Virus record (IMG/VR): IMGVR_UViG_3300009514_000025 | Span: 1 to 61,657 of that record | Strand: one strand, 5' to 3' | Origin: a virus | DNA length: 61,657 nt | Shown here: positions 1-59,451 of the stretch, piece by piece | How the letters are laid out: each line of letters opens with the position of its first letter | Numbering within the stretch: position 1 is the stretch's first letter | Translations under genes and position numbers: made by a program | The notes under the pieces: model-generated | Databases searched by the model: none | Seen by the model: only the letters and a program-made list of their open reading frames with translations | Told to the model about the DNA's origin: nothing

Positions 1-2215
1 AAGGCAACACAAACGAAACCTCTACATATGATCCATCTACAACAAAAGTATCTGTTGCATTTAAAAGTTCTAACTGTGGTATATTGTCTGGTATACCATC
101 GTCATTTATATCTGTTGGCAGAACTGACAACCTATTATCGTCTGGAATACCCGCATTTGGTAAATTCTGTGCTACTAATTCTTGACCTAAAATATTATAT
201 TTCTTATTAGAACTTAACATTCCTGTTTTATTACCATCCAGATTAGCACGAAGAACCAAAATATTGTCGTCATTTGAACTTAACGTACCAAAGTTTATTA
301 TGTTAGTAGTAGTATTACTATGTCTAAATTTAGTAGTCTCACTTTGGGCATTCATTCGTTTCGTTTTCCAACGAACTGTCCAACCAGACAATTTGCTTGC
401 AGAGAACTGTGCTTCAATACGAATCATGAAGATTGGATCAGTGATTGTTGTCCCATCAACTTCCCACGCTTCATCAATTATTGAATAGTATAAATCGACT
501 TGTGGGTTTGCTGATGTTGCTGCATTATCAAGCGCGGCGATTATTGAAGATGTTTCGGAAACAGTAAAAGTAGCAGCAATTCGTTCACCTAATATATTAT
601 AGAAATCAGAGCAGCTAAGTAATGGCTCAACAAAGTTGGCCAATACTTCATTTGAAAGAAGCGCACGATTTGATATCACGAGGCCACCCGTTTCCACAGC
701 ATCTTCAAGCCAATAAAGCGCAAGATCTTCACCAAATATCTTTACATCTTCATAATATTCTTTTGGATCGTGCCATGCAATATATTTGGAATCACCAGAA
801 AATGTTCTATTAACTGCTTGTAATTTCAAAATTGATGGATCTTGTAACATGAATGAATTATAATCGCGCCCATTAACCATTCTGTCTTGTGTATAGTAAA
901 CAGATGGTGCTACCCTACGAACATGTTCAATATCTTCTGATATTGATGCATTTTGTAAAGAATTAATTAAAGAAAACGTGAACGTTAACGTTTGTGTAGT
1001 ATTAGTCAAGTCAAGATATGTAAAGGATGCTGTTTGGTCTACCACAGCAGTTTTTTGTATAATGCTATTACTATTGGCAGATGTTCTATACCAAATATCA
1101 AATTCACCAGATGGAATATCAGAGAATTCACCATCACCAAAAATCAAACGAACTTGATCTTTATCAAGAGTTTCAATTTCATACTTCTGTCTATTCGTAT
1201 CTGAGTTGAATAATATGTTTTGTGCATTTGCCAAATCAACTTCTTCCCATTCGCCATATCTACCCGAACCATCATCTAAATGGGGCAATATCTGTGCAAA
1301 TGGGTTTACTTCAAGAATCACTCGCGTATCAGCATTGACGTTATTTAACCATACATCAGTTTCATTAATATTATTGATAGCAAGGTCATGGGTTTGATTT
1401 GGTGTTACACCATCAAATGATTGTTGTTGTAATTGTAATGTTCCTTGTTTCGTAAAACAGAAGAAACCTGTTGTATCAGAACCATCACCAAGACCGTCAT
1501 TGCCATATAATAATGACATTTTTGCGTTTCTTTCTGGACGTTTTTCAACTGGTGATGTTTCTGTTAATTTAACAGGCACCAATTCCATAGAAAACGATTC
1601 GCCTGCCGAAGTTGCCGAATAATTAAAAGTAGTAATACCATTACCTTTTAATGGCTGATTATTCCACGTATAAATTTCAAACAATACGTCTTCTATTTGT
1701 ACTCGTTCATTTGGTGCAATAGTACCGAAATCTTGTTCTAGTACACGATTCATAACAAGTAAAAATTGTTCTTTCCAGTCAGAATTATTTAAGTCATTCC
1801 ACACTATCTTAGTATTAGCTAGATTTCTTCCTGTTGAATCCACTACTTGTTCTGTAGTTTTTATGGATGTAATTTTTACTAGACCACGAGCTGCAATGTT
1901 TCTGGAAGCTTTATATGATATCAGTTTTGCCAATCTAAGGATAGATTCTTTACGCTCAGCAGTCGTAATAAAGTTTTCGTGTGCATTTAAATCAAGACGA
2001 TACGCTAAAATTTCACCAACATAGGCAAAAATTTCAAGGATTGCAATAAATTCACTTGATTCAATATAATCATTGAAGTCTTCTGGGAAATATAGTTTTA
2101 CATAGTCCAGCAGGCTTTCTTTGATAGTATTATAATCAAATGCGTTGAAGTTTACTCGTGTAAATACTTCATGCGCTCGTGTCCAAGCTTCTGCTCTTGA
2201 AATTTCGGTAGCCAT
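1..2215 (-). CDS. 6: Baseplate wedge protein gp6-like (3' end outside window)
   Basis: This is a structural subunit of the baseplate wedge; in T4, gp6 dimers form the ring that holds the wedges together. The frame starts with ATG at 2215 and stays open to the window edge, giving about 738 visible residues (T4 gp6 has 660), so the C-terminus is missing. The N-terminal part contains the run DFNDYIESSEF, then LDLNAHENF and ERKESILRLAK, which are typical of the gp6 family, followed by GRNLANTKIVWND. It is the last visible gene of a minus-strand baseplate operon. Its start lies two bases after the gp25 gene ends, which suggests coupled translation. The family call is firm; the exact length is unknown. 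Confidence 0.85.
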   Translation of the reverse strand, partial: MATEISRAEAWTRAHEVFTRVNFNAFDYNTIKESLLDYVKLYFPEDFNDYIESSEFIAILEIFAYVGEILAYRLDLNAHENFITTAERKESILRLAKLISYKASRNIAARGLVKITSIKTTEQVVDSTGRNLANTKIVWNDLNNSDWKEQFLLVMNRVLEQDFGTIAPNERVQIEDVLFEIYTWNNQPLKGNGITTFNYSATSAGESFSMELVPVKLTETSPVEKRPERNAKMSLLYGNDGLGDGSDTTGFFCFTKQGTLQLQQQSFDGVTPNQTHDLAINNINETDVWLNNVNADTRVILEVNPFAQILPHLDDGSGRYGEWEEVDLANAQNILFNSDTNRQKYEIETLDKDQVRLIFGDGEFSDIPSGEFDIWYRTSANSNSIIQKTAVVDQTASFTYLDLTNTTQTLTFTFSLINSLQNASISEDIEHVRRVAPSVYYTQDRMVNGRDYNSFMLQDPSILKLQAVNRTFSGDSKYIAWHDPKEYYEDVKIFGEDLALYWLEDAVETGGLVISNRALLSNEVLANFVEPLLSCSDFYNILGERIAATFTVSETSSIIAALDNAATSANPQVDLYYSIIDEAWEVDGTTITDPIFMIRIEAQFSASKLSGWTVRWKTKRMNAQSETTKFRHSNTTTNIINFGTLSSNDDNILVLRANLDGNKTGMLSSNKKYNILGQELVAQNLPNAGIPDDNRLSVLPTDINDDGIPDNIPQLELLNATDTFVVDGSYVEVSFVLP

Positions 2216-2216
2216 T

Positions 2217-2597
2217 TTAATCCTCGAATTGAATATTTAATTCAAAATCATCTACGGTGTTTAATTCAACATAATACAATTCTGCACTCACATATACAGA
2301 ATTGGTATCAAAATTAGGAGTCACTGATAAACTAACAAGAGACACCCTTGGATCATAATCAAATATTGTAAGAAGTTCAGCGTATACTTCGTCTATTAGA
2401 TCGCCATCAAGTTGTTCAAATGCAAGTTCAGGTATACTGCTGCCAAAATCAGGCATCATTACTCTGGTACCACGCGTGGTGAAAATATGATTCAACAAGT
2501 CTATTTTCACCAATTCAATGTCCCTAATACTTAAAGACTTATTTCGTTGAAATTCAAAAGTTGAATATCCTTTATATAAATTTTTGCGTAGTGCCAT
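2217..2597 (-). CDS. 25: Baseplate wedge protein gp25-like
   Basis: This 126-residue protein matches the size and pattern of T4 gp25 (132 residues), the conserved sheath-interacting wedge subunit found in most contractile injection systems. Visible family features are the N-terminal segment leading to a TTRGTRVMMPDFGS-type loop, then ELAFEQ and an acidic helix ending in the DPRVSL strand that holds the conserved family core. The protein is soluble with no signal peptide. The start ATG at 2597 lies about 24 bases downstream of a GATAAATA late-promoter octamer on the same strand, so the gp25-gp6 pair may have its own late transcript in addition to read-through from the upstream baseplate genes. 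Confidence 0.9.
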   Translation of the reverse strand: MALRKNLYKGYSTFEFQRNKSLSIRDIELVKIDLLNHIFTTRGTRVMMPDFGSSIPELAFEQLDGDLIDEVYAELLTIFDYDPRVSLVSLSVTPNFDTNSVYVSAELYYVELNTVDDFELNIQFED

Positions 2598-2620
2598 ATC
2601 AAAATCCTAACATTTTCTAA

Positions 2621-2628
2621 TATTTATC
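2621..2628 (-). promoter_or_regulatory. T4-type late promoter (gp25-gp6)
   Basis: GATAAATA on the minus strand, in the gap between the gp5-like and gp25 genes, about 24 bases before the gp25 start codon. Confidence 0.55.
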
Positions 2629-2645
2629 TTATTGCGGCATATGAT

Positions 2646-4106
2646 TTATCGGTGCCATTTCGGGTTACGACCCAAATCGTCGCCACGTTCTTTATGACCT
2701 ATCAAGGCATCGTCATATGATAAGAATTCGCCCGAATCTTTGTGGGTATTATTTAAATCTAAATCAGTTACGCCAGGATCGGTCATCATTCTTGCCCATG
2801 GTTCATGTTCGGGGACACGACTTGTCCACCATGCATCAAGGGCGGCCGCATCATCGGCGGCCGGACCGTTAAGGTGAATTTCCGTTCCAGTTTCTACGAT
2901 ATTGCCACCAGCCTTTATATTGACATCCCCACTTGCTTGTAAATTTAAAACGCCATTGGCAGCTTTCGCGTGGAAGTTAGTTTCTGATTTTAAGCTTAAA
3001 TTACCACCATTCGCTCCCTTTGCGTGTACTCGAACTTCATCTTCCGATATTAGATGAATACCATTTTTAGCTTTTACACGGAATGTATCACCCGCCGTAA
3101 AATTGATGTCCTTTTCAGCATGAACTGAAATATTGCGTTCGCCGTAAATATCAATATTGCCCTTTTCATCAAGTTCAATCCAAGTCTTGCCTTGGGCAGT
3201 ACTGATGTATACGCGCTCATTCGTATCATCCATAATGACTTGATGACCATGGGTTGTACGAATGCGAATACGGCAATTTTCAGAAGAATCAGACATTGAT
3301 ACAGAATGGAATCCTGGCGTAGTCCACGAATATACTTGTGGATCATATGCAAATTCTGTAGCTCCAGATAATAATCCTTCTTGTACTCTACTTTTGGCAT
3401 ATCCATGTGTATGCACTATTTTAGTACCATCTGGTTCTGTAAATGCTTCTGCTTTATCATCAGATTGTGCAGTAAATATTATTTCATCGGTCTCAATATA
3501 TTCCGCATCAACACCAGCAACACCTTTATCTGCACCACGTGTTCTATATTCGTAATTTTTTCTTGGTTCGGGCGGCGGGTCAGTATTTACAATTTTTTGT
3601 TCTTGACTCTTCTTAAATACCAAGGTTTGGTTATCATATAAAGGTTGTATTTGATTTTCTGTTGATGAAAGTGGCCCTGATGGTTCATCTGTAAGAACAT
3701 CGTTTGTTTTATATGTATATCTACCATGTGGTAACGTATGTGGTAAAAATTGATCATGCATACAACCTAAATATACGCGAAAACGCGGATCGCCTTCAAT
3801 ACATGCAACTAATGCATATGTTCCTACTTTTGGAACATTGAACATACCATATGCAACTGGACCAAATGTTTTATCATTACCACGACCACGGGATGCTGAC
3901 CAAGTAGAACCAGCCAATGGTGATATTGGTGATGCCCATGGTATATCTTCTATGACGGTTTCTTCAAGGTCACCAAAAAATGGACATGCTACACGGGCAC
4001 GTCCCATTTGTTGCGGATCATTAGTATCAACAACTCTACCTAGTGTTAACTGATCAAAATTTCCGTCAACGTCTAATAATCTTCTTACATCATCAAATAT
4101 TGCCAT
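2646..4106 (-). CDS. 5: Baseplate central spike protein gp5-like, without a visible lysozyme domain
   Basis: The protein forms the membrane-piercing spike below the baseplate hub. The N-terminal ~110 residues look like the gp5/VgrG OB-fold (TLGRVVDTNDPQQMGRARV, then an aromatic and glycine-rich barrel, ending in a GDPRFRVYLG strand). The C-terminal half (about residues 270-430) is a repetitive beta-helix of alternating strands with motifs such as DINFTAGD and DVNIKAGG. T4 gp5 has a T4-lysozyme domain between these two parts; here only a short, low-complexity linker is seen, with no lysozyme-like Glu/Asp active site. I place the start at the ATG at 4106; an upstream TTG at 4112 is unlikely. 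It follows the hub candidate gene closely. Confidence 0.8.
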   Translation of the reverse strand: MAIFDDVRRLLDVDGNFDQLTLGRVVDTNDPQQMGRARVACPFFGDLEETVIEDIPWASPISPLAGSTWSASRGRGNDKTFGPVAYGMFNVPKVGTYALVACIEGDPRFRVYLGCMHDQFLPHTLPHGRYTYKTNDVLTDEPSGPLSSTENQIQPLYDNQTLVFKKSQEQKIVNTDPPPEPRKNYEYRTRGADKGVAGVDAEYIETDEIIFTAQSDDKAEAFTEPDGTKIVHTHGYAKSRVQEGLLSGATEFAYDPQVYSWTTPGFHSVSMSDSSENCRIRIRTTHGHQVIMDDTNERVYISTAQGKTWIELDEKGNIDIYGERNISVHAEKDINFTAGDTFRVKAKNGIHLISEDEVRVHAKGANGGNLSLKSETNFHAKAANGVLNLQASGDVNIKAGGNIVETGTEIHLNGPAADDAAALDAWWTSRVPEHEPWARMMTDPGVTDLDLNNTHKDSGEFLSYDDALIGHKERGDDLGRNPKWHR

Positions 4107-4121
4107 TACCAATTATACCTA

Positions 4122-6143
4122 TTATTCAGTTTTTTCTTGTTTTATTCTTTTCAACAATTCTTCATTCATCTGCTTCACTGTATTTTTATCACCATCAGCT
4201 AAATCAATTATGGTTTCTATTTCTTCAACAACTTCAGTGGTATAGTCCACCAATGATTGCCACCAACCTTTATCTTCTTCTTTTTTGTCATCTGTTTTCT
4301 TTTCAATTTTATCTGCTACAGGAAGACTCATCATATCCAATTCCTGTAAAAATTCACCATTGTCAAAAATTTGCTTTACAGCAAATAACGTATAATATCC
4401 AGTATACCAGAAGTCTTCATATTCTGTGTTAATATCATTTGCATCAACTGGCATTTTGATATTTACCTTCACAAGAGTGGGAGTTTGTAGCCATTTTGGA
4501 TTTATTGTCTTATCTTTTTTGGGTGGTTCATTTTGCATATCTTTTTTAGGTTCATTTTTTTCGCTATCATAAAGATTGGACGGTGTTATTTGCATCTCAT
4601 TCAACAACTGTGGATTTCCATAAATTGTCATTACGGCTTCAATATTTTCTAAGGCTGCATGACGATTTAATAATGCCTGAAATGATGCACTATCTACTGG
4701 ATTTTTTGCATTTCTTCCCATTGGTTGTTTAACTTTACTACCAAGAAATAAAGGCGTTTTAGATCTTCGTTTTTTGCCTTTAGATGCGACCGAAGGTTGT
4801 CCACCCACATGTGCCATTGGAGAAGTATTACCATCTTTAAAATTCTTTTGTGCTGGTAAGGAATCCGTCGTGGCGGCAACCTGAAAGAATGTCATTGCCA
4901 TTTCCATTTTGATATCAAAATTCTTAATATCAACATTTTTGCCAGTAAAAATATAATTAAATTCGATTGATTGTCCATCAGGTGGAACGTATTCTTCACC
5001 ATTAAAAACAGCATCATATGGCATAGTTGCCATTTCATACTTGTTAATAAAGTAATCTACATAACATCCATCATGCCTAGAATTTAAACCTGATACTATT
5101 TTGTAGATATACTTTTTACCATCTTCCGTACCTTTTCCATCTTTAATTACACCATTAGAAGATTGCATTATTTTTTTTATTATTTCTTCTACGCCTATAT
5201 CTTTACCAAAATTAAAAGAACCATCTTTCGTTTTATTTGCGGTTCGAACATGTTCATTATCAGCTGCTTTATACTTAGTAGCATCTTTGTAATCAGGCGC
5301 GAAAAATCTATACTTAACAGAACGATAGTTTGCATCAAAAAATCGTGCTGCTTTATCGACAGCTACTTTTGTTGATATTTTTTTGCCTTCCTTTTCTGCA
5401 GCGTCGTATAACGTTTTCGCAAATTCAGAAACAGCCTGTATTTTATATTTTTCATATGCTTTATTTACTTTGGTTCCTAGTTTGGTAAAGGTCTGGTCTA
5501 ACGAATCTCCCGAATCTATTTTAAAATTAAATCCGTTAAATATTTTTTGTGTATGTGGAAGTTTACCTAATCCATTTATAGCGCCAATAAACATCATTTT
5601 ATATTTTGCACCAGAACTATCAAAAATAGCACTAATATCATAATTGACGAATAATAGTGGTTTAATATTTGATAACATTTCTGTAGTACCATCTTCATTA
5701 TGGCCTACGAATATTGTCTTCAAAACAAACACTAATCCAACAGGGTCAGTATCCAATTCATCGCATACATCTGTTAACCTATTGAGGAAACTTGCACCAA
5801 GTGGTTCCATGATTTCAAGTTCACCTTCAAGGGACATAGACGTTGATTGTGGTATATTACCTTTTCCAACGTAATTCTCCATCGCGATGATATTTTCCCA
5901 TGTTGCACTTGTTATATAAAATCTTGCATCTGAGGTACCATCTATAAGCGTGATGTATTTGTTATTTTCGTTTTTTCCAATTACCCGGGCCGCATATCTG
6001 GTTTTATCGTGTGGATGTTGAAAAGTTGTTATTTCGCTTGTATTAACTAGTTCTTCTGCTGCTTGTGTGTTGTTACATACCATAAGTATATGGTGGTAAG
6101 CATATGATCTAAACTTCCCAAGAATGTTATGTGGTTTTGACAT
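4122..6143 (-). CDS. Baseplate hub candidate (gp27-position structural protein)
   Basis: This is a 673-residue protein with no signal peptide or membrane segment. It lies directly upstream of the gp5-like spike gene and downstream of the gp53-like gene, the place where a baseplate hub subunit is expected. The N-terminal third (LGKFRSYAYHHILMVCNN onwards) looks like an ordered beta-rich structural domain. The middle has a charged helical stretch (about residues 230-310), and the C-terminus (about 610-673) is strongly charged and probably disordered, with many Lys/Glu/Asp. The role is inferred from position and from the lack of any enzyme motif. T4 gp27 is much shorter (391 residues), so homology is not proven; another hub or injected protein is possible. 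Confidence 0.5.
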   Translation of the reverse strand: MSKPHNILGKFRSYAYHHILMVCNNTQAAEELVNTSEITTFQHPHDKTRYAARVIGKNENNKYITLIDGTSDARFYITSATWENIIAMENYVGKGNIPQSTSMSLEGELEIMEPLGASFLNRLTDVCDELDTDPVGLVFVLKTIFVGHNEDGTTEMLSNIKPLLFVNYDISAIFDSSGAKYKMMFIGAINGLGKLPHTQKIFNGFNFKIDSGDSLDQTFTKLGTKVNKAYEKYKIQAVSEFAKTLYDAAEKEGKKISTKVAVDKAARFFDANYRSVKYRFFAPDYKDATKYKAADNEHVRTANKTKDGSFNFGKDIGVEEIIKKIMQSSNGVIKDGKGTEDGKKYIYKIVSGLNSRHDGCYVDYFINKYEMATMPYDAVFNGEEYVPPDGQSIEFNYIFTGKNVDIKNFDIKMEMAMTFFQVAATTDSLPAQKNFKDGNTSPMAHVGGQPSVASKGKKRRSKTPLFLGSKVKQPMGRNAKNPVDSASFQALLNRHAALENIEAVMTIYGNPQLLNEMQITPSNLYDSEKNEPKKDMQNEPPKKDKTINPKWLQTPTLVKVNIKMPVDANDINTEYEDFWYTGYYTLFAVKQIFDNGEFLQELDMMSLPVADKIEKKTDDKKEEDKGWWQSLVDYTTEVVEEIETIIDLADGDKNTVKQMNEELLKRIKQEKTE

Positions 6144-7311: not shown

Positions 7312-7332
7312 AACTATTAATTGGAGATAAAA

Positions 7333-7851
7333 ATGGCAAAAGAAGAAGAATTAAAAGCGCCGGCCAAGAAAAAAGTCAACTATATACGAAACAAAGACTT
7401 GCTTGCTGAAGTAATAGCCTGTAAAGAACAGGGTAAAATGTCAAATAAGTTAGCCCGAATGCTTCAATTGCTGACCGCAAAATATGGGCGTTCTTCACAG
7501 TTTGGTGGATACACCTTTAACGAAGATATGCAAGCCTATGCAATGATGATGTTGTGTAAAACATGGGTTGGTTTTAACCCCGAAAGAAGCGATAATGCCT
7601 TTGCTTACTATACCCAAAGCATTAAAAATTCATTCAAACAGTTCTTAAACCGTGAAAAGGTTCAAAGAGTTGTGCGAGATGAACTATTAGTAGATAAGGG
7701 CTTAAACCCATCACATACGTATACAATTGAACATTCTGATGCAGACCATCATTATGTACATGATGAAGAAGATCATCAACAAGTCGTGCAGGATATGAAA
7801 GAAATAAATGAAAATGATAGTTCAGAAGAATTAATTATTTTTAACAAATAA
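7333..7851 (+). CDS. 55: Late-transcription sigma factor gp55-like
   Basis: A phage sigma-family protein that directs host RNA polymerase to late promoters of the TATAAATA type. The 172-residue length is close to T4 gp55 (185). Visible family features are the N-terminal YIRNKDLLAEVIACKEQGKM helix, a central region-2-like block with FNEDMQAYAMMMLCKTW and FAYYTQSIKNSFKQFLNRE, and an acidic tail ending EELIIFNK, probably the clamp-binding end. The start is the ATG at 7333, with GGAG seven bases upstream; a TTG at 7321 is rejected because it precedes the ribosome binding site. It is the first gene of the plus-strand early block, behind a consensus sigma70 promoter, and the window contains many octamers it would recognise. 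Confidence 0.88.
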   Translation: MAKEEELKAPAKKKVNYIRNKDLLAEVIACKEQGKMSNKLARMLQLLTAKYGRSSQFGGYTFNEDMQAYAMMMLCKTWVGFNPERSDNAFAYYTQSIKNSFKQFLNREKVQRVVRDELLVDKGLNPSHTYTIEHSDADHHYVHDEEDHQQVVQDMKEINENDSSEELIIFNK

Positions 7852-7876: not shown

Positions 7877-8926
7877 ATGGGTGATACTAAACCCACGCTG
7901 AATAAGGGTGCATTCTTTACAGATTTGCACGTAGGCGCTAAATCTAATTCACAGCAACATAATGAAGATTGTGTCAATTATATTGATTGGTTCTGCGCAA
8001 ACGTAAAGGCAGATCCAACGATTGACTATATTTGTTTCGTGGGGGATTGGCATGAAGTCAGAAGTGCAATTAATGTATTTACTTTGAAGTATTCATATGA
8101 AATTGCTATAAAAATCAATGATTTAGGTCTTCCTGTATATTTTATCATAGGAAACCATGATTTATACCACAGAAATAATAGGGATATTTATTCAGTTATT
8201 CCGTTTCACGAATTTGAAAATTTCACCATTATTGACGAACCTACAGTAATTGACAACATTGCGGATGGTGTGTTAATGTGTCCATTCCTATTCCACGAAG
8301 AATATCCCAAGTTGGTGAAATATAACAAGATTCCATTTTGGGTAGGACATTTTGAATTTAAGGGTTTTGTGGTTACTGGTTATAATATCACCATGAAAAC
8401 TGGTCCAGATCACACGGATTTCAAAGGTCCAGAACATATTATATCTGGACATTTTCATAAACGGCAGACCAGTGGAAACGTAACCTATATAGGGAATGCT
8501 TTTCCAACCAATTTCAGTGATGCGGATGATATTGAACGTGGTATGATGGTTTTTGACCATAAAAAGAAAGATATGGTGTTTTTTGATTGGGCAGAATGTC
8601 CTAAGTATATTAAAAGCTCGCTTTCGGATATTGTGGCAGAAAATATCACATTATACCCTAATGCACGTGTTAGATGCATTGCCGATATTCCCATAACATA
8701 TGAGGAAAGTCTGGAATTGAAGAAAACATTTATAGAAAAATATAATCTTCGTGAATTTTCTATTGAAGAATCCAGTGAAATTAACGAAGCATTATCAGAA
8801 ACTGAAACAAATGTTGATGACAAAGACCTTGGTACTGTTGATGAAATGGTAGTTGAAATGTTGGGAGATATTGAATCTGATCACATTAATAATGAATTAC
8901 TTACAAAGATATACCAAAATTTATAA
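7877..8926 (+). CDS. 47: Recombination endonuclease subunit gp47 (Mre11/SbcD-like)
   Basis: Metal-dependent nuclease subunit that works with gp46 to resect DNA ends for recombination-dependent replication. The 349-residue protein (T4 gp47: 339) shows all calcineurin-like phosphoesterase motifs: TDLHVG (residues 15-20), a GDWHE motif near 55, GNHD at 92-95, and SGHFHK near 190, which supply the two-metal ligands. The C-terminal third (after about 270) is acidic and probably contacts the gp46 coiled-coil base. It lies 26 bases after gene 55 and 26 bases before gene 46, as an operon. Confidence 0.92.
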   Translation: MGDTKPTLNKGAFFTDLHVGAKSNSQQHNEDCVNYIDWFCANVKADPTIDYICFVGDWHEVRSAINVFTLKYSYEIAIKINDLGLPVYFIIGNHDLYHRNNRDIYSVIPFHEFENFTIIDEPTVIDNIADGVLMCPFLFHEEYPKLVKYNKIPFWVGHFEFKGFVVTGYNITMKTGPDHTDFKGPEHIISGHFHKRQTSGNVTYIGNAFPTNFSDADDIERGMMVFDHKKKDMVFFDWAECPKYIKSSLSDIVAENITLYPNARVRCIADIPITYEESLELKKTFIEKYNLREFSIEESSEINEALSETETNVDDKDLGTVDEMVVEMLGDIESDHINNELLTKIYQNL

Positions 8927-8952: not shown

Positions 8953-11900
8953 ATGATTAGGTTTAAACAACTTTCAATTAAAAATTTTCTTTCATACGGT
9001 GAAGCACCAACAGTAATAGACCTTGATGATATTGGTACTACACTGATCGTAGGCGAAGATCTCGACAATACTGCAAGTGGTACTGGCGCTAATGGCGTTG
9101 GTAAAGCACAACCACTCCATTGTAAAATAAAAACTCCTACAGGTTGGACAACGATGGGTGATATTTCTATTGGTGATGTAGTTAGTACACCAGATGGAAA
9201 AACAGCGACCGTAAAAGGTGTATTTCCACAAGGTGTAGTAGAAACATACAAAATATATTTTGCCGATGGTAGAACTACAGAAGCTTGTGGTGAACACCTA
9301 TGGAAAGTTAACAGCCATAGATGGAGAAATGATAAAAAATCAAATGCTTCAAAAATTATCACAACGAAAGAATTGAAACAATGCGTCGATGAAGCAAACA
9401 TCAAAAATAAATCATGGTATAATTGTACCATTCCAATGGTCAATCATCCAGAAGTTCAAGATGTATCTTTGCCTATAGATCCTTATTTGTTAGGAGCTTT
9501 GATTGGCGATGGTACAATATGTTATAGGAATATTAGATTTACATCCAAGGATGATATCATTATTGATGCTGTTTCTAACATATTAAAGGAAGATTTTTCA
9601 CAGGAATTATCTCATGAGAAGGATTACAATTATTATGTTAGAAACACCATTAAAAGAGTTGGATATAATCCAGTGGCTGATATCTTAAATGAATTATCGT
9701 TACTTGGTACTAACTCTCATAATAAATTTATCCCAAAAATATATTTAGATCATGCGAGCAAAGATCAAAAAATTCGACTTTTACAAGGACTGATGGATAC
9801 TGACGGTACTGTAGGTAAAAATGGTGCTGTTACATTTTGTTCCACGAGTAAACAACTAATTGAAGACGTACAATATTTAATTCGTAGTATTGGTGGAAAA
9901 GCCAAGATATCATCAAGAATACCAACATACTCGGATGTTTTTGGTAATAAAATAAATGGAAAACTAGCATATAACCTTTTAATACAGTATGCTTCACCAA
10001 AAGATTTGTTTACTTTACCGCGCAAACAACAGAACATTAATGAAAATTATCAATATGCTAATGCAGGTCTACGTGTTTTACGTGTAGAAAAAATACAAGA
10101 CCAAGAAGCACAATGTATTATGATCGATCATCCAGATCGATTATATGTTACAGATGATTTTATAGTTACGCATAATACTGTGTGGATTAACGCACTTATA
10201 TTCGCATTATATGGTAAACCAATATCTAATATTTCTTTAGACAATCTTATTAATAATATTAATAAGAAAAATATGGAAGTCTCCGTTGAATTTGAAAAAG
10301 ATGGTGAAATTATAACAGTTTCCCGTGGTCGAAAAGTAACGGGTAAGGGCAATTTCGCTAAAATCTTTGTTCGTCCGATGGGTGTTGATTTGGATGAACA
10401 ACTTCATGATGAAACACCTGACAGTATTAAAAATATTACAGACTTCGTTGTCGAAAAACTTAGCATACCATATGAACTGTTTGTTCGTATCGTTGCATTT
10501 GCCGCAACACATACACCGTTTCTTGATTTGCCTGTTAGACATGCTTCACAGGCAAATCAGTCTGATATTATGGAAGAACTGTTTAGATTAACCCAATTAT
10601 CTGTTAAGGCCGAATCTCTTAAAATAGAAATAAGAGATACTAAGCAGAAGTTGGAAATTAAGATTAAACATAATGAACAACTTGAGAAAGAACACGAACG
10701 CCATAATAAATTGCTCGATACTGCGCAAGGCCGTGTTGATGAATGGGAAAAGGAACGCGAAGAAAACATTACAATCATAGAAAAGGAACTTACAAAATAT
10801 AAGGCTGTTCCTGTTAAAGAACAGGAAAAATTATATAAGCGTGTCGATGAGTTAAAGGTTATGCTTGTCAAAGAAAAAGAAAAACAGTCCGAAATTGAAT
10901 CAGTAGTAACAAAAATTAGTGCTGACTATACAATAGTAAAAGCAAATCTAAAGCGCGTTGAAGAAGAAAAAGAAAAGATTTTAACTTGGAAAGAAGAAAA
11001 TACCAAGAAGGTTGCTAGATATAAAGAAGAGGCGGATAGACTACCAAAAGCACATATACTTGATGAACAAACTACTTTACATCAAACATTAAAAGGTTTG
11101 ATGGAAGATTTAGAAACGCTTGTTACAAAAGAAAGCGAAATGAAGTCAACCATTAAGGACACTATTAAAGCTATAAACAAAGCCGAAAAGGAACTAGTTC
11201 ACCTTGAAGATGAAAAATGCCCATATTGCTTACAACAGTATGCGGATGCGACTAATAAGGTTGATGAATGTAGGGAAACCATAAAAATTAAACAACAGGA
11301 AGAAATTGATGGCACTATGCTTTTGGATGTTGTACAGAAAAATATAAAAAAGACGGAAAAAGATATAGAAGCAGTATCAAGTGATATTAAGTATTCAGTA
11401 GATCAAATAAAAGAATATGAACGCTTACGCGCAGATTATATTATAAAATTGGAAGAACTGCTTAATGAAGAATGTCCTCATGGTGATAAAACTTCCGTGG
11501 GTGATATGATTACTATAATTTCCAATCTGAAAAAGGAATCTGCAGCACTTAAAGAAAAACTTTCAGCAGAAGCAGAGGATTTAGTAGAAATAGATGAAGT
11601 GGTAGAAGCACTCTCTAAAGAGTTGGAAAATTGTGAAAATGCTATCGTTATTCCATCATTAAATGAATTATATGAAATCAAAAACAAGATTAAACAATGT
11701 AAAGATAAGGTTAAGGAATTAAACGGTGCGGCAAATCCATATCTTGAACCATTAAAAGAATTGGAAGATATTAAACTTGAACCAATTGATATGGATGCTA
11801 TTAATGAATTGAATAACCTAATAACACACCAAAATTATCTGGTTAAATTACTGACCAAAAAAGATAGTTTTATTAGAAAGACATTATTGAATAAGAACTT

Positions 11901-12315
11901 GGCATTCTTAAATCAGCGATTGAAGCATTACCTAACTGCATTGGGATTACCACATAAGGTTGAATTTACACACGAAATGACTGCGAACATATCACAGTTT
12001 GGTAGGGAACTTGATTTTGGTAACCTATCCAGTGGACAAAAAGCTCGCGTAAACCTTGGTTTGTCGTTCTCATTTAGAGATGTATTACAGAAATCACATG
12101 ACAGTATTAATGTCTGTATGCTTGATGAAGTATTAGATGTGGGACTTGATTCAGTCGGTGTACAAAATGCAGCAAGGATGTTGAAGCGCAAAGCACGAGA
12201 TGAAGACTTAGCGCTATACATCATTTCACATAGGGATGAAGTCAGCAACATCTTTGACAGAAAAATGATAGTACAAATGGAAAAGGGATTTAGTTCAGTG
12301 AAGGTAGAGAATTAA
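8953..12315 (+). CDS. 46: Recombination endonuclease ATPase subunit gp46 (Rad50/SbcC-like) with in-frame intein
   Basis: SMC-like ATPase partner of gp47 in DNA-end processing. The precursor has 1120 residues; removing the 357-residue intein (residues 52-408) leaves 763 (T4 gp46: 560). The intein splits the Walker A motif: GANGVGK ends the N-extein and Thr409 starts the C-extein, restoring GANGVGKT. The C-extein then shows long coiled-coil arms (about residues 555-1010), the zinc-hook CPYC at 756-759, the ABC signature LSSGQKARVNLGLSF, and the Walker B end CMLDEVLD. Without splicing the ATPase should be inactive. The stop codon overlaps the next small gene's ATG by one base, suggesting translational coupling. 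Confidence 0.93.
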   Translation: MIRFKQLSIKNFLSYGEAPTVIDLDDIGTTLIVGEDLDNTASGTGANGVGKAQPLHCKIKTPTGWTTMGDISIGDVVSTPDGKTATVKGVFPQGVVETYKIYFADGRTTEACGEHLWKVNSHRWRNDKKSNASKIITTKELKQCVDEANIKNKSWYNCTIPMVNHPEVQDVSLPIDPYLLGALIGDGTICYRNIRFTSKDDIIIDAVSNILKEDFSQELSHEKDYNYYVRNTIKRVGYNPVADILNELSLLGTNSHNKFIPKIYLDHASKDQKIRLLQGLMDTDGTVGKNGAVTFCSTSKQLIEDVQYLIRSIGGKAKISSRIPTYSDVFGNKINGKLAYNLLIQYASPKDLFTLPRKQQNINENYQYANAGLRVLRVEKIQDQEAQCIMIDHPDRLYVTDDFIVTHNTVWINALIFALYGKPISNISLDNLINNINKKNMEVSVEFEKDGEIITVSRGRKVTGKGNFAKIFVRPMGVDLDEQLHDETPDSIKNITDFVVEKLSIPYELFVRIVAFAATHTPFLDLPVRHASQANQSDIMEELFRLTQLSVKAESLKIEIRDTKQKLEIKIKHNEQLEKEHERHNKLLDTAQGRVDEWEKEREENITIIEKELTKYKAVPVKEQEKLYKRVDELKVMLVKEKEKQSEIESVVTKISADYTIVKANLKRVEEEKEKILTWKEENTKKVARYKEEADRLPKAHILDEQTTLHQTLKGLMEDLETLVTKESEMKSTIKDTIKAINKAEKELVHLEDEKCPYCLQQYADATNKVDECRETIKIKQQEEIDGTMLLDVVQKNIKKTEKDIEAVSSDIKYSVDQIKEYERLRADYIIKLEELLNEECPHGDKTSVGDMITIISNLKKESAALKEKLSAEAEDLVEIDEVVEALSKELENCENAIVIPSLNELYEIKNKIKQCKDKVKELNGAANPYLEPLKELEDIKLEPIDMDAINELNNLITHQNYLVKLLTKKDSFIRKTLLNKNLAFLNQRLKHYLTALGLPHKVEFTHEMTANISQFGRELDFGNLSSGQKARVNLGLSFSFRDVLQKSHDSINVCMLDEVLDVGLDSVGVQNAARMLKRKARDEDLALYIISHRDEVSNIFDRKMIVQMEKGFSSVKVEN
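9106..10176 (+). other. Class 3-type intein with LAGLIDADG homing endonuclease domain, inside gp46
   Basis: A 357-residue protein-splicing element at precursor residues 52-408. It begins with Ala (AQPLHCK), not the usual Cys or Ser, and ends HN before Thr. The three residues that define class 3 inteins appear in their expected places: Trp117 two residues after the block B His115 (GEHLW), Cys388 at block F position 4 (AQCIMID) and Thr406 just before the terminal His-Asn (VTHN). Two dodecapeptide motifs of the LAGLIDADG family are present: LLGALIGDGTI near residues 178-188 and LLQGLMDTDGTV near 276-287. Both keep their acidic residue, so the homing endonuclease may be active. Confidence 0.9.
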
Positions 12316-40816: not shown

Positions 40817-42373
40817 ATGGCGCGCGCAAAGAATAATAACCTAAAGAAACCTGGACAGGAACTTGAATATACACATGAACAGGTGATGGAATTGAAGCGC
40901 TGTGCAGAAGATCCAATCTATTTTATAAAAAAATATGTACAGATTCAACATCCAACAAGAGGCGCTATACCATTTGACCTTTATTCTTATCAGGAAAAAA
41001 TGATAAGGGCATATCAAGATAACCGTTATACGGTTGTTCTTTCTGCACGCCAAACAGGTAAATCTGTTACATCCGCTGCATATCTTCTTTGGTATGCAAT
41101 GTTTCATTTTGATAAAACTATTTTGATTGCATCTAATAAAAACGCAAATGCAATGGAAATGATTCTGCGTATTAGATTCGCGTATGAAAATCTTCCTTTC
41201 TGGTTGAAACCTGGCGTTAAAGACGATGGTTGGAATAAGCACGAAATTGGTTTTGATAATGGTTCTCGTATTGTGTCAACTGCAACATCAGAAGATTCTG
41301 GTCGTGGTATGGCTATTTCACTTTTATTCCTTGATGAATTTGCATTCGTAAAACATGCTATTCAAGATGAATTTTGGACATCTATTGCACCTACATTATC
41401 AACGGGTGGTTCATGTATAATGACATCCACTCCAAATGGTGATATGAACATATACGCACAAGTTTGGCGTGGTTCACAAATGGGTACAAATGGATTTTAT
41501 CCTATACATGTTAAGTGGGATGAGCCACCAGATCGTGATAGCAAATTTAAAGAAGCGGAAATTGGAAGAATCGGTGAAAGACGCTGGCAACAAGAATATG
41601 AATGTGTATTTTTATCATCCGATTCGCTGTTGATCGATTCTTTATTCTTAACAAATATTTCATCAACAATTGAAAAGATCGTTCCTAAGCTTACAGTAAA
41701 TGATGTTGTTTTATTTGAAGATATAAAACCGATGACAACCTATTTGCTTGGAGTTGATCCTGCAACCGGCAATGGTGAAGATTTTAGTGTTATAAGTATA
41801 TATGAATTTCCATCAATGGTTCAAGTTGGCGAATATCGTTCTAATACTATGTCAACAAATGATTTATATGGTGTTATGAAAAATATTCTAAAACACATGG
41901 AATCGAAAGGTGCCATGGTATATTTCTCAATAGAAAATAATGGTGTTGGTCAGGGACTGATCGCATTATATGAAGCAGATGAAGATCCTTTGAACACGGT
42001 TGAATTTATTTCCGAAGATGGTAGAAATAAATTAGGATTTACCACGACTGCTCGTAGTAAAATGCGTGCATGTGTTAACCTGAAGGAAATGCTTGAGAAA
42101 TCTAATATGCATATTCGTTCCAAAATTCTTTTATCTGAATTGAAATCTTATGTTCGACATCGTGGCGCATATGCAGCGCAACCAGGTGCCACAGATGATT
42201 GTATTGCTGCAACACTTATTGTACTTAGACTGGTAGAAGAAATTGCATCATATGAACAAGCTGCTTTTGATAAGCTATATTCTGGTGACTATGATGAATG
42301 GGACTCGTCAGAGTGGGATGGTTATGAAGAAGGTTACGATGATAACGATGAAGGAATGCCAATTTTATTTTAA
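40817..42373 (+). CDS. 17: Terminase large subunit gp17
   Basis: The ATPase-nuclease that packages DNA. The 518 residues (T4 gp17: 610) include Walker A SARQTGKS at about residue 76-83, Walker B LLFLDEFAF near 171-179, the coupling motif TSTPNG near 199, and the nuclease active-site start LLGVDPATGNGEDFSVISI near 312-330. The C-terminus is acidic (DEWDSSEWDGYEEGY). It has no intein. A ribosome binding site (AAGGAAG) lies nine bases upstream, and a weak AGTAAATA octamer is at 40771-40778. Confidence 0.95.
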   Translation: MARAKNNNLKKPGQELEYTHEQVMELKRCAEDPIYFIKKYVQIQHPTRGAIPFDLYSYQEKMIRAYQDNRYTVVLSARQTGKSVTSAAYLLWYAMFHFDKTILIASNKNANAMEMILRIRFAYENLPFWLKPGVKDDGWNKHEIGFDNGSRIVSTATSEDSGRGMAISLLFLDEFAFVKHAIQDEFWTSIAPTLSTGGSCIMTSTPNGDMNIYAQVWRGSQMGTNGFYPIHVKWDEPPDRDSKFKEAEIGRIGERRWQQEYECVFLSSDSLLIDSLFLTNISSTIEKIVPKLTVNDVVLFEDIKPMTTYLLGVDPATGNGEDFSVISIYEFPSMVQVGEYRSNTMSTNDLYGVMKNILKHMESKGAMVYFSIENNGVGQGLIALYEADEDPLNTVEFISEDGRNKLGFTTTARSKMRACVNLKEMLEKSNMHIRSKILLSELKSYVRHRGAYAAQPGATDDCIAATLIVLRLVEEIASYEQAAFDKLYSGDYDEWDSSEWDGYEEGYDDNDEGMPILF

Positions 42374-51524: not shown

Positions 51525-54500
51525 ATGGCAGATAAATTACCAATTAAGGCAAAGTGGTCAGGTGGATCGCCAGATGATGTTATTGCTTTACAAGAATTTC
51601 AATCGACTGATACTATAGCCCTTAATTATCTCTCTGGCGGTGCATCGCCTTCTGAAGGCCATGTACTTACTTGGGGCGGTAGCCCATTGGGATGGATTAC
51701 AGCTGCCCCAGATCTTGGCGCTAATAACTTAGATGACTTATTAGATGTTTTCATTACAGGAGCAGGTTCACCAGAAGTACCAGCAGACAATGAAGTTCTT
51801 GCTTATGATAGTAGTTCTGGTAATTGGATTAATCAAACCGCATCCGAAGCTGGGTTATCTATAGTAGGCCACACACATACCTTAAATGAACTTAGTAATG
51901 TATATGTATCTGCTGGTTCACCAGAAATAACAATAGGTTATGTGCTTACTTATGGTGGTAGTCCTTTGGGTTGGTATGCAATTGCGCCCGCTGTCGGAAT
52001 AGATGCGTTAGATGATTTAACAAACGTTACCATTGCATCTGTTACATCAGGCGAAATTTTAGTATATCAGGGATCACCAGCCGAATGGCAAAATAATACA
52101 TTGGCAGAAGCAGGCATTAGTGCTATAGGCCATACACACGCAATGGTTGATATCACAGATTCAACGTGGATTAGTGATATTACAAGTGAAAATCTTGAAG
52201 ATTTAAACAACGTTTCATTAACAGGTTCACCACAACCAGTATCAGGTGATTTATTAAGATGGAACGGTTCAACGTGGATCAATTATCCAGATAGTAATTT
52301 TTCATCATCTGGTCATAATCATACTAAATCTGATATTACAGATTTTACCGAAAGCGATTATGTTCATACTACCGGCACTGAAACTGTTGGTGGTAATAAA
52401 ACATTTAGTAATGATATTATAATTTCGGGTGATCTTACTGTTAATGGTACTACAACTACCATTAATACAACTACACTTGAAATCGGCGATAACATTTATC
52501 TTCTCAATGCAGACATGGATGATGGTAGTCCAATTCCTGCACCTACACAAGATGCTGGTTTTGAAGTCGAGCGTGGTATAGTTGATAATGTGTCTTGGCT
52601 TTGGGATGAAACTGTCGATACGTTTAGACCTAAATTAGGAACAGGTGAAGCATATTTAGGATATGTATTAGATCCTACTAATGATAACCATATTGGTGAT
52701 CGTGGGTATAACGATTTAAGATATTCTAATATAAGTCATGCACACGCAATAAATGAGTTAAGTGATGCTACTATAACTTCACTTACAGCAGGCGAAGTAT
52801 TAATTTCTGCGGGTTCACCACTTGGTTGGATTAACCAAACATTAGCTGAAGCAGGCATCTCATCTGATTCACATACACACATTATAAATGATTTAACAGA
52901 TATAACTATTGCATCTGTTACATCTGGTGAAATTCTTGTCTATCAAGGTTCTCCAGCCGAATGGCAGAACAATACATTAGCAGAAGCAGGTATTAGTGCT
53001 GTTGGTCATACACATGTTATGGTTGATATTACAGATTCAACATGGATCAGTGATATTACAAATGAACCAATTGCCGACCTTAGTGATGTGACAATTAATG
53101 CTGTCGGGTCAGGCGAAGTCCTTGTTTATCAGGGTTCACCAGCCGAATGGCAAAATAACACATTAGCAGAAGCGGGAATTTCTGCGATTGGTCATACGCA
53201 TGTCATGGTTGATATTACTGATTCAACTTGGATTAGTGATATTACAGCAGAACCTATTGCCGATCTTAGTGATGTTACTGTTGCTTCTCTTGGTGCAGGT
53301 GAAATATTAGTTGCTGTCGGATCACCGCTTACATGGATTAATCAAACATTAGCAGAAGCAGGTATTGCATCTGATTCACATACACATATAGTTAATGATT
53401 TAACAGATGTAACTATTGCATCTGTCGGGTCAGGCGAAGTCCTTGTTTATCAGGGTTCACCAGCCGAATGGCAAAATAACACATTAGCAGAAGCGGGAAT
53501 TTCTGCAACAGGCCACACACATGTGATGGTAGACATTACTGATAGTACTTGGATTAGTGATATAACAGCAGAATCATTGGATGATCTTAGTGATGTTTAT
53601 ACGCCAGCCCCACAAGTAGGTGAATTGCTTACTTACGGTGGTAGTCCGTTGGGTTGGTATGCGGCCGCACCCGCTGGTGGAGTAGATGCATTAGATGATT
53701 TAACCGATGTAGTAATTACAGGTTCGGTAGGTTCACCATTAACTCCCGCTGATAATGAGTTGCTTGCTTTTGATATTGGTTCAGGTAATTGGATTAATCA
53801 AACAGCAGCACAAGCAGGGTTATCTGTAACTGGTCATACACATGTTATGGTTGATATTACTGATAGTACTTGGATTAGTGATATTACAGGAGAACCTATT
53901 GGTGATCTTAACGACGTTACAGTTACATCACTTACATCAGGTGAAGTATTACTTTCCAGTGGTTCACCACTTGGATGGATAAATGCAACGCTCGCAGAAG
54001 CAGGCATATCTGCAACTGGCCATACCCATGTTATGGTTGATATTACAGATTCTACATGGATTAGTGATATAACAGCCGAAAATATTGAAGACTTAAACAA
54101 TGTTTCATTAACAGGTTCCCCAGCGCCAGTATCTGGGGATTTATTAAGATGGAACGGTTCAACATGGACAAACTATCCAGATAGTAATTTCTCATCGTCT
54201 GGTCATACACATGTCAAGGCGAATATTACAGACTTCACTGAATCTGACTATGTTCACACGACGGGTGTTGAAACTGTTGGTGGTAATAAAACCTTTAGTA
54301 ATAATATAATTATCTCTGGTGACTTAACAGTTAACGGTACAACGACTTCTATTAATACTACCACACTTGAAATAGAAGATAATATTTATCTTCTTAATTC
54401 AGGAATGGTAGGAAGTCCTCTTGTTGCTCCTACACAAGACGCTGGCTTCGAAGTCGCCCGTGGTACAGCTACAAACGTATCATGGTTGTGGGATGAAACT

Positions 54501-57368: not shown

Positions 57369-58679
57369 ATGTCACAGTATTTAAGAAATTTAACAGATTC
57401 ACCTGTATATAATGTAGAACTTACCGATCTTGGTATTACGGTTGAGGTTGGCGTTGACTATGATACGTCTGAAATAGATTCGGGCGATTTAGGTAATAGC
57501 ATTGATTTAGTAACTGCTATTCAAGCTGGTGAAGTTGCTTTTTTGAACGATGAAACTTCGCCATGGGTTCCATTATCTTCTCAAGAAAGCCAAGCTATTA
57601 TTAATGCATCTAATAATGCTGCTACTAATATTTTAGGAACAGAAAACTTCTTTCCAAAATGGGCAGATGATTGTCCTTGTACGCTCACAGAATCGAACAT
57701 GTATCAAGATCCTTCTACAGGATATATTGGTGTTAATTTACAAGGAAGTCCATTAACACCGGCGACAGATTTTGATATTAATGGTTCATTACAATTAACA
57801 GGTTCAAGTTCTGGTTATACAAGATTTGATGTCCCTGCCAGTGGCGATAATGTTATCTATACATTACCAAGTAATGATGGTGATTCAAGTCAGGTACTTC
57901 AAACAGACGGGTCTGGAACACTTACTTGGGTTGATCAAACGGTAGGTACAAGTGTTCTTAACGATTTAGATGATGTAACAACTTCTTCACCAACATCTGG
58001 TGAAGTTCTTGTATATCAAGGTTCGCCTGCTGAATGGCAAAACAACACACTTGCGGAAGCAGGCATTAGTGCTGTTGGACACTCGCACTCACTTGGTGAT
58101 TTATCAGATGTTAACGTTACTGCATCAGGCTCGCCATTGCCAACAGATGGACAAGTATTAACATATGATACAACAAATGGATGGCAACCAGAAAACCCAT
58201 ATGGTGCTGGTTGCGGTATGGTTATTCAGCGTCTTCATGGATCTGTTGCTGAAAAATCTGGTACATCAGAAATTCCATATGATGACACTACACCACTTGT
58301 TACAGAAGGTACAGAAGTATGGTCACGAGCCATAACACCAGTAAATACGGCAAATGATATAGAATTAACATGTTCTTTAACACTCGATGCTTATGTTTCG
58401 GGCGGTATGGGTGGCGGGGATATGGAAGTTGTTGTTACTTTCTTTAGAGATTCAACCTGCATTGGTGCAATGGCACAATTTATAAGTAGTTACGACGAAC
58501 AACAAGTCCATATTTCATTAACTGATTCACCATCTACTACTTCAAGTATAACGTATTCTTGTAGAATTGGCAGATTGGGTTCAGAAGGAACATGGTATGT
58601 TAATAGACTTAGCTCAAGTAAATTTAATGGGATGTTAGCCAAACAAGGTTACATCTTGAAGGAGATAGATAATGCCTAA
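57369..58679 (+). CDS. Tail fibre protein with C-terminal receptor-domain type 2 (436 aa)
   Basis: A mosaic fibre. The N-terminal ~90 residues (SQYLRNLTDSPVYNVELTDL) belong to the attachment module seen at 48068 and 50993. A short middle contains FDVPASGDNVIYTLPSNDGD and VLQTDGSGTLTWV, a common phage fibre unit, and one LAEAGISAVGHSH repeat. The C-terminal ~155 residues (VIQRLHGSVAEKSG ... GTWYVNRLSSSKFNG) are shared with the next two genes, not with the giant fibre. Its stop lies inside the start of the next gene. Confidence 0.75.
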   Translation: MSQYLRNLTDSPVYNVELTDLGITVEVGVDYDTSEIDSGDLGNSIDLVTAIQAGEVAFLNDETSPWVPLSSQESQAIINASNNAATNILGTENFFPKWADDCPCTLTESNMYQDPSTGYIGVNLQGSPLTPATDFDINGSLQLTGSSSGYTRFDVPASGDNVIYTLPSNDGDSSQVLQTDGSGTLTWVDQTVGTSVLNDLDDVTTSSPTSGEVLVYQGSPAEWQNNTLAEAGISAVGHSHSLGDLSDVNVTASGSPLPTDGQVLTYDTTNGWQPENPYGAGCGMVIQRLHGSVAEKSGTSEIPYDDTTPLVTEGTEVWSRAITPVNTANDIELTCSLTLDAYVSGGMGGGDMEVVVTFFRDSTCIGAMAQFISSYDEQQVHISLTDSPSTTSSITYSCRIGRLGSEGTWYVNRLSSSKFNGMLAKQGYILKEIDNA

Positions 58680-59451
58680 TTATATGAATTTGATGGGTGA
58701 GCATTATCCAGAAATAGAATGCTACTGTGATGGCGATCCTACTGTTTATGGAAACATTACATTTGTCGGCTCGCCAACAATTTCACAGGGTACGTTAGAT
58801 GCATTGACTGAATCCCCACGACTTTACCAGATTGAAGCACCGTTGGGTTCTCCGCTTCCAGCAGATGATACATTGTTGCAATATGAAGAAACCGATAATA
58901 CTTGGCACTATAAAACAGCAGCCGATGCAAGCGTTTCTGTTATCGGTCATCCACATACTGAATCTGACATTACAGATTTACAACCAAGTAAAGTGATTCA
59001 GCATATGGATGGTGCTATATCAAAAACATCTGGCACAATTGAAATTGCTGGCGGTGATGTAACGCCACCCATAACAGAAGGTGTTGAACTTTGGTCGCAG
59101 GCGATAACACCCACAGATGCTGCAAACACGGTAGAGATAACAACAAATATGATCCTTTCTGCATATGCAAATGCCGGTCATGGTTATGGTGCACTTGACG
59201 TTGCTGTTACATTTTATAGAGATTCAACATGTATTCTTGTCTTGCCACATAGTTTACAGAGTGCAGAAGCGCATCATTGTGGTAGTACCTTTATTGATAC
59301 CCCGGCAACCACATCTAGTGTAACATATTCATGTAGGGTAGGAAGAACATCTGGAGAAGGCGCTTGGTATGTTAATGGTCTTTATTTAAAGGAATTTCAG
59401 GGCTTGATTGCTAACCAAGGTTATACGGTAAAGGAGATAAGAAATGCCTAA
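58672..59451 (+). CDS. Short tail fibre/receptor-binding protein (259 aa)
   Basis: The N-terminus MPNYMNLMGEHYPEIE, then GDPTVYGNITFVGSPTISQG, is a second type of attachment module, shared with the next two genes. It has almost no shaft, and ends in the type 2 C-terminal domain (IQHMDGAISKTSG ... GAWYVNGLYLKEFQG). Compared with its relatives the central glycine-rich loop differs (AGHGYGALDVAV instead of GGMGGGDMEVVV), a likely specificity region. It overlaps the preceding gene by eight bases and the next one likewise. Confidence 0.75.
   Translation: MPNYMNLMGEHYPEIECYCDGDPTVYGNITFVGSPTISQGTLDALTESPRLYQIEAPLGSPLPADDTLLQYEETDNTWHYKTAADASVSVIGHPHTESDITDLQPSKVIQHMDGAISKTSGTIEIAGGDVTPPITEGVELWSQAITPTDAANTVEITTNMILSAYANAGHGYGALDVAVTFYRDSTCILVLPHSLQSAEAHHCGSTFIDTPATTSSVTYSCRVGRTSGEGAWYVNGLYLKEFQGLIANQGYTVKEIRNA

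What the first reader, a model, noticed from the sequence alone, without database searches (positions are those of the whole stretch)
9106..10176. Class 3-type intein splitting the P-loop of the gp46 (Rad50-like) ATPase
The element starts with Ala, lacks the N-terminal Cys/Ser nucleophile, and has the Trp (block B, GEHLW), Cys (block F, AQCIMID) and Thr (VTHN) triad that defines class 3 inteins. It sits inside Walker A between Lys51 and Thr409, so gp46 is inactive until splicing. Class 3 inteins are uncommon and best known from DnaB-type helicases and some phage proteins; I know of no standard example in gene 46. Both LAGLIDADG motifs look intact.
Basis: partly seen in the sequence, partly recalled or inferred. 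Interest (0 to 1): 0.78.

Follow-up and report, generated by a model that had tools for sequence, protein, structure and literature searches.

The report
Class 3 intein in phage gp46
A phage DNA-repair ATPase gene (gp46, the phage Rad50) carries, exactly inside its ATP-binding loop, a self-splicing protein element of the unusual 'class 3' type with an intact-looking homing endonuclease; the element is a genuine but recognisable kind, and the new part is that gp46 is a recurrent home for it, apparently invaded in several separate lineages.

Summary
Window 8953-12315 is one open 1120-codon frame for gp46/SbcC. A 357-residue insert (9106-10176) lies between Lys51 and Thr409 of Walker A (GANGVGK|T). 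Close relatives (71-73% identical) have the empty site. The insert has the complete class 3 signature: no Cys/Ser at position 1 (Ala), Trp66 (B:12), Cys337 (F:4), Thr355 (G:5), plus His64 and terminal His-Asn. The triad, His64 and the final Asn are invariant in 70 non-redundant relatives. The best solved-sequence matches are known class 3 DnaB inteins, and AlphaFold gives a confident intein-plus-endonuclease fold (pLDDT 93). Both LAGLIDADG motifs keep their aspartates. Nor is the gp46 host a one-off: I found the same site occupied in 11 other complete uncultivated-virus gp46 genes, in cultivated phage SCTP-2 (unannotated) and, as a variant, in phage LfeInf (annotated 'putative intein'). The gp46 inteins fall into about three lineages, one joined with inteins of UvsW-like helicases, so they appear to hop between P-loop genes. 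Splicing and endonuclease activity are inferred, not shown. Verdict: new member of a known kind, moderately interesting.

The parts
8953..12315 (+). gp46 (Rad50/SbcC-like) gene with in-frame intein, 1120-aa precursor
   Evidence: single open frame; phrog_77 SbcC-like, E 5.9e-76
8953..9105 (+). N-extein, 51 aa, ending in Walker A GANGVGK
   Evidence: matches empty-site gp46 L082/L083
9106..10176 (+). class 3 intein with LAGLIDADG homing endonuclease, 357 aa
9295..9303 (+). block B His64-Leu-Trp66 (Trp = B:12 of the WCT triad)
   Evidence: H64 and W66 invariant in 70/70 relatives; aligns with H-x-W of MchDnaB1 6rix/6riy
9487..9513 (+). LAGLIDADG motif 1 (LLGALIGDG, Asp135)
   Evidence: D in 60/70 relatives; alignment
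9778..9807 (+). LAGLIDADG motif 2 (LLQGLMDTDG, Asp233)
   Evidence: D in 62/70 relatives; LAGLIDADG_3 E 9.7e-13
10114..10116 (+). block F Cys337 (F:4), presumed initiating nucleophile
   Evidence: C in 70/70; aligns with Cys of 6rix/6bs8 block F
10168..10176 (+). block G Thr355-His356-Asn357 (Thr = G:5; Asn = C-terminal cleavage)
   Evidence: T and N 70/70, H 69/70
10177..12315 (+). C-extein, 712 aa, starting with +1 Thr of Walker A; carries CPYC zinc hook, LSSGQ signature and Walker B VCMLDE
   Evidence: sequence; SMC_N and phrog_77 matches
7877..8926 (+). gp47 (Mre11/SbcD-like nuclease), partner gene directly upstream
   Evidence: Metallophos, phrog_100 SbcD-like E 5.5e-57

Best explanation
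The insert is a mobile class 3 intein. The host gene is translated as one 1120-aa precursor whose Walker A loop is split. Cys337 in block F attacks the Lys51-Ala1 peptide bond to form a first branched thioester. The N-extein then passes to Thr409 (+1), Asn357 cyclises, and a 763-aa gp46 with a restored GANGVGKT loop is released together with a free 357-aa intein. The free intein's two-motif LAGLIDADG domain is expected to cut intein-free gp46 genes at their Walker A codons (about AAYGGNGTNGGNAAR|ACN), so that recombination copies the intein in. Shown here: in-frame insertion, exact empty sites, the full class 3 residue set, a confident predicted fold, conserved endonuclease motifs, purifying selection on sister inteins, patchy distribution. 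Inferred: the chemistry, cleavage site, mobility, and inactivity of unspliced gp46.
For: Junctions fixed by empty-site homologues. W, C, T, block-B His and terminal Asn invariant in 70/70 non-redundant relatives, matching the published definition W B:12, C F:4, T G:5 (PMC3196547, PMC5050341). PDB sequence search: best hits 6rix, 6riy and 6bs8, the class 3 DnaB inteins, with the residues aligned. AlphaFold pLDDT 93.4, pTM 0.91; Foldseek puts TliVMA and PI-SceI intein-endonucleases first and class 3 inteins 6rix/6bs8 further down, about 1.2 A over 69 columns. Same site occupied in 12 other complete or near-complete gp46 genes. Extein tree: window gp46 nests among three intein-free relatives (100*), presence/absence needs 7 changes, at least 4 forced by starred branches. 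dN/dS about 0.08 for both splicing and endonuclease parts of L120 vs L124.
Against: No experiment. The nearest intein relative is only 56% identical, so neither this copy's splicing nor its endonuclease activity is proven; three gp46 inteins (L001, L056, L128) have lost endonuclease residues, so decay is common. Coordinates of the model were not available to measure Cys337-His64-Thr355 geometry.
Confidence: 0.93

Rival explanations
1. Splicing-competent class 3 intein whose endonuclease is already inactive, so the element is now only vertically inherited.
For: Related gp46 inteins L056 (269 aa, endonuclease largely deleted), L001 and L128 have lost LAGLIDADG acids. The window intein's relatives are divergent.
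Against: Both aspartates and surrounding motifs are kept in this copy, LAGLIDADG_3 E 9.7e-13. The window gp46 sits among intein-free sisters, which suggests recent acquisition.
Confidence: 0.2
2. Dead or mis-splicing insert: the gene is a pseudogene and the phage lacks functional gp46.
For: Insertion is in an essential loop; a class 3 intein pseudogene is known (Arth_1007, PMC3196547).
Against: No stop or frameshift in 1120 codons. All catalytic splicing residues present. Exteins 71-73% identical to intein-free gp46 with dN/dS 0.13-0.16.
Confidence: 0.04
3. Class 1 or class 2 intein, with the W/C/T coincidences not in the proper blocks.
For: Position 1 is Ala, as in some class 2 inteins.
Against: Cys at F:4 and Trp at B:12 align column by column with solved class 3 inteins and are invariant across 70 relatives. 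Class 1 requires Cys/Ser1, absent here and in all 12 sister gp46 inteins.
Confidence: 0.02

Closest known systems
Class 3 DnaB inteins of Mycobacterium (MchDnaB1, PDB 6rix/6riy; MsmDnaBi1, PDB 6bs8)
   Same: WCT residues, block-B His, no N-terminal nucleophile, splicing-domain fold; host is an ATPase
   Different: those are chains of about 130-145 aa without endonuclease; host is DnaB
Phage P-loop (K|T) inteins of TerL and helicases (mycobacteriophage TerL1-a site, PMC5050341; jumbo-phage SF2 helicase inteins, e.g. Salmonella phage SA002, 43% identity)
   Same: K|T Walker A insertion; for the relatives found here (e.g. SA002) also class 3 signature and LAGLIDADG endonuclease
   Different: host gene is a terminase or helicase, not gp46. 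I did not check which class the TerL1-a inteins are
Inteins in gp46 of other viruses: IMG/VR L114 (56%), L126, L085, L086, L004, L118, L120, L124, L002, L056, L128; Salicola phage SCTP-2
   Same: identical insertion site, class 3 residues
   Different: 28-56% identical to the window intein; L001, L056 and L128 have decayed endonucleases; +1 is Ser in L002 and L118
Lactobacillus phage LfeInf gp46 homologue (KP054477.1, 'putative intein' in GenBank)
   Same: intein in gp46-like Walker A K|S, AQP start, block F Cys
   Different: Phe instead of Trp at B:12 and Ser instead of Thr at G:5; GenBank places its N boundary about 32 residues too far downstream

Membership tests
Class 3 intein | no Cys/Ser nucleophile at intein position 1 | tested here: met
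   Ala1; junction fixed by empty sites L082/L083
Class 3 intein | Trp at block B:12 | tested here: met
   W66, 70/70 relatives; aligned with 6rix/6bs8
Class 3 intein | Cys at block F:4 | tested here: met
   C337, 70/70 relatives
Class 3 intein | Thr at block G:5, followed by His-Asn | tested here: met
   T355-H356-N357
Class 3 intein | HINT splicing fold | tested here: met
   AlphaFold pLDDT 93; Foldseek to 6rix, 6bs8, 6riz
Class 3 intein | splices through a block F Cys branched intermediate | not testable with these tools
   needs expression and mutants
LAGLIDADG homing endonuclease | two LAGLIDADG motifs with acidic catalytic residues and endonuclease fold | tested here: met
   D135, D233; PF14528 E 9.7e-13; PI-SceI among top structural hits
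LAGLIDADG homing endonuclease | cleaves the intein-free allele | not testable with these tools
   natural empty alleles identified (L082-L084) for such a test
gp46 / Rad50-SbcC | SMC-type ATPase, zinc hook, signature and Walker B, next to gp47/SbcD | tested here: met
   phrog_77 E 5.9e-76; CPYC, LSSGQ, LDE in sequence; gp47 upstream
P-loop (K|T) intein insertion | insertion between Walker A Lys and Thr/Ser | tested here: met
   K51 and T409; 12 further gp46 genes at the same site

The most novel reading that the evidence does not exclude
A lineage of Walker A-specific class 3 inteins has repeatedly invaded phage recombination ATPases, moving between gp46 and the unrelated UvsW-like helicase. 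Because gp46/47 is thought to process the DNA ends used in homing, an intein that keeps gp46 inactive until it has spliced could time or limit its own mobility and the phage's recombination-dependent replication.
Probability: 0.12. Interest if true: 0.68.

Novelty: new member of a known kind. Interest (0 to 1): 0.42.

Why it matters
It adds the phage Rad50 (gp46) to the genes that host class 3 P-loop inteins and shows that this is recurrent, with ready-made empty alleles for homing tests. gp46 helps process DNA ends in T4-type recombination (PMC2988022 lists gp46 and gp47 as possible homing factors), so the intein sits in a gene its own mobility may depend on. The 51% identity between a gp46 intein (L002) and a UvsW-like helicase intein (L006), grouped with 97/96 support, makes cross-gene homing between unrelated P-loops testable. 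The LfeInf variant (Phe-Cys-Ser) bears on how strictly the WCT triad is required. Several such gp46 genes are unannotated or have a misplaced boundary.

Tried and rejected
A class 1/2 assignment was rejected on block alignment. Intron: rejected, as the insert is in frame without stops and is conserved as protein. Single origin of all gp46 inteins: the best one-clade tree is 25.9 log units worse, p-AU 0.043, a marginal rejection with long branches in play and with the group named after a first tree was seen, so 'about three lineages' is the better reading but not certain. Cellular Rad50/SbcC with the same junction: a pattern scan of 84,980 genomes gave 64 stretches, of which one (L147, not SbcC-like by its N-extein) looked like this intein family after translation; the pattern is exact, so absence is not proven. 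Literature searches for intein with gp46, Rad50, SbcC or 'recombination endonuclease subunit' found no report of such an intein in the passages I read; not every listed paper was opened, and the library lacks most subscription papers, Tori & Perler 2011 included. Guessing recent arrival from base composition was uninformative (GC 0.33 vs 0.34, GC3 0.19 vs 0.26).

Full report
What is there. The frame 8953-12315 is open for 1120 codons. Its outer parts are gp46, the phage Rad50/SbcC: PHROG 77 'SbcC-like' at 5.9e-76, with a CPYC zinc hook, LSSGQ signature and Walker B VCMLDE visible in the sequence. Directly upstream lie gp47/SbcD (7877-8926) and a gp55-like late sigma factor (7321-7851). The insert 9106-10176 begins right after Walker A Lys51 and ends right before Thr409.

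Junctions. Three uncultivated-virus gp46 genes (L082 on a 363-kb contig, L083, L084) match the spliced protein over its whole length at 70.9-72.7% identity; L082 and L083 were printed and read GANGVGK-TVWINAL with no insert. This fixes the boundaries independently of any intein motif and shows that the empty site exists in close relatives. In the extein tree the window gene sits inside this otherwise intein-free group (100*), and occupancy across 38 gp46 genes needs at least seven gains or losses on the tree, four of them forced by starred branches.

Class. The published definition is Trp at B:12, Cys at F:4, Thr at G:5 and no nucleophile at A:1 (PMC3196547, PMC5050341). The insert has Ala1, Trp66, Cys337 and Thr355, with His64 and terminal His356-Asn357. 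In an alignment of 70 non-redundant relatives (window included), Trp, block B His, Cys, Thr and Asn are invariant, and the penultimate His is in 69. Against solved structures the best sequence hits are 6rix, 6riy and 6bs8, all class 3, with these residues aligned. In the MchDnaB1 intein the Cys-His-Thr set forms a protease-like triad (PMC7664689). AlphaFold on 26 window and IMG/VR inteins gave pLDDT 93.4 and pTM 0.91. Foldseek ranks intein-endonucleases TliVMA and PI-SceI first, and the class 3 inteins follow.

Endonuclease. PF14528 matches at 9.7e-13. Both motif aspartates, D135 and D233, are present. Among sister gp46 inteins, L056 is a 269-aa form with most of the endonuclease gone, and L001 and L128 have lost the acids, the pattern expected of a homing cycle (inference). 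For the closest pair (L120 vs L124) dN/dS is 0.08 in the splicing part and 0.07 in the endonuclease part.

Not an isolated case. tblastn of the intein hits 705 phage records, 553 with at least 80% coverage. Hosts checked by Pfam or PHROGs include UvsW-like and other SF2 helicases, PhoH, UvrD, DnaB-like helicase and terminase; 'UvsW-like' is my reading of SF2 helicase matches (ResIII, PHROG 16). A junction pattern scan adds proteins whose N-exteins look like DnaB/gp41-, Clp- and Lon-type ATPases (named from sequence only). In gp46 itself the same K|T site is occupied in L002, L004, L056, L085, L086, L114, L118, L120, L124, L126 and L128 (intein complete; the gene runs off the contig or stretch held in L085, L114, L124 and L128), in truncated L115, L123 and L125, and in cultivated Salicola phage SCTP-2, where the gene is annotated 'hypothetical protein'. 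Lactobacillus phage LfeInf carries an annotated 'putative intein' in its gp46 homologue; by my reading its true start is K38|A39, and its triad is Phe-Cys-Ser.

History. The intein tree gives a window clade of six gp46 inteins (100/100), a second group in which gp46 L002 joins inteins of UvsW-like helicases L005 and L006 (97/96) next to four gp46 inteins, and a third pair L001/L128 (100/100). Holding all gp46 inteins together is marginally rejected (p-AU 0.043). L002 is 51% identical to the L006 helicase intein and 50% to gp46 L118. I read this as several entries into gp46 and at least one move between gp46 and a helicase P-loop; the direction is not resolved.

Mechanism. Established for class 3 inteins: block F Cys attack, transfer to the +1 residue, Asn cyclisation (PMC3196547, PMC5050341). 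Inferred for this copy: that it splices, that unspliced gp46 is inactive because Walker A is split, and that the endonuclease cuts the empty Walker A codons. Nothing here tests regulation of gp46 by splicing.

Verdict. New member of a known kind, in a host gene for which the papers I could search gave no report, though one GenBank record already notes an intein there.

Noticed in passing
L138 (KP054477.1, LfeInf) 1402-4395: gp46-like intein with block F Cys but Phe at B:12 and Ser at G:5 (Phe-Cys-Ser instead of Trp-Cys-Thr) and Ala1; annotated N boundary looks about 32 residues too late.
   Followed up: partly
L001 2352-5117 (Salicola phage SCTP-2 gene 539): gp46 annotated 'hypothetical protein' carries an unannotated class 3 intein with decayed LAGLIDADG motifs.
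   Followed up: yes
L005 1-2022: UvsW-like helicase with a P-loop class 3 intein and the start of a second Hint domain further on (Pfam Intein_splicing at 591-669), so possibly two inteins in one helicase.
   Followed up: no
L135 1402-4011 (Klebsiella phage KP13-16): UvrD-like helicase with a P-loop class 3 intein and a second Hint match at 585-666.
   Followed up: no
L025 ORF at 3737: intein-family matches extend over residues 89-855 of a 1321-aa TerL-like frame, suggesting two related inteins in one gene.
   Followed up: no
L219, L224, L257, L266: AQPL-type class 3 P-loop inteins in proteins whose N-exteins look like Clp and Lon ATPases on viral contigs.
   Followed up: no
L234: DnaB-like P-loop intein with HVF rather than HLW at the block B position by a simple pattern match; may be another Phe variant.
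   Followed up: no
window 40817-42373: the phage's own large terminase has an intein-free Walker A (RQTGK|SVTS), a site often occupied by this intein family elsewhere.
   Followed up: yes
window 51525-57365: 1946-aa protein with eight matches to one PHROG (9627), a repeated-domain, probably tail-fibre-type protein; two neighbours (57369-58679, 59444-61264) share the same domain.
   Followed up: no
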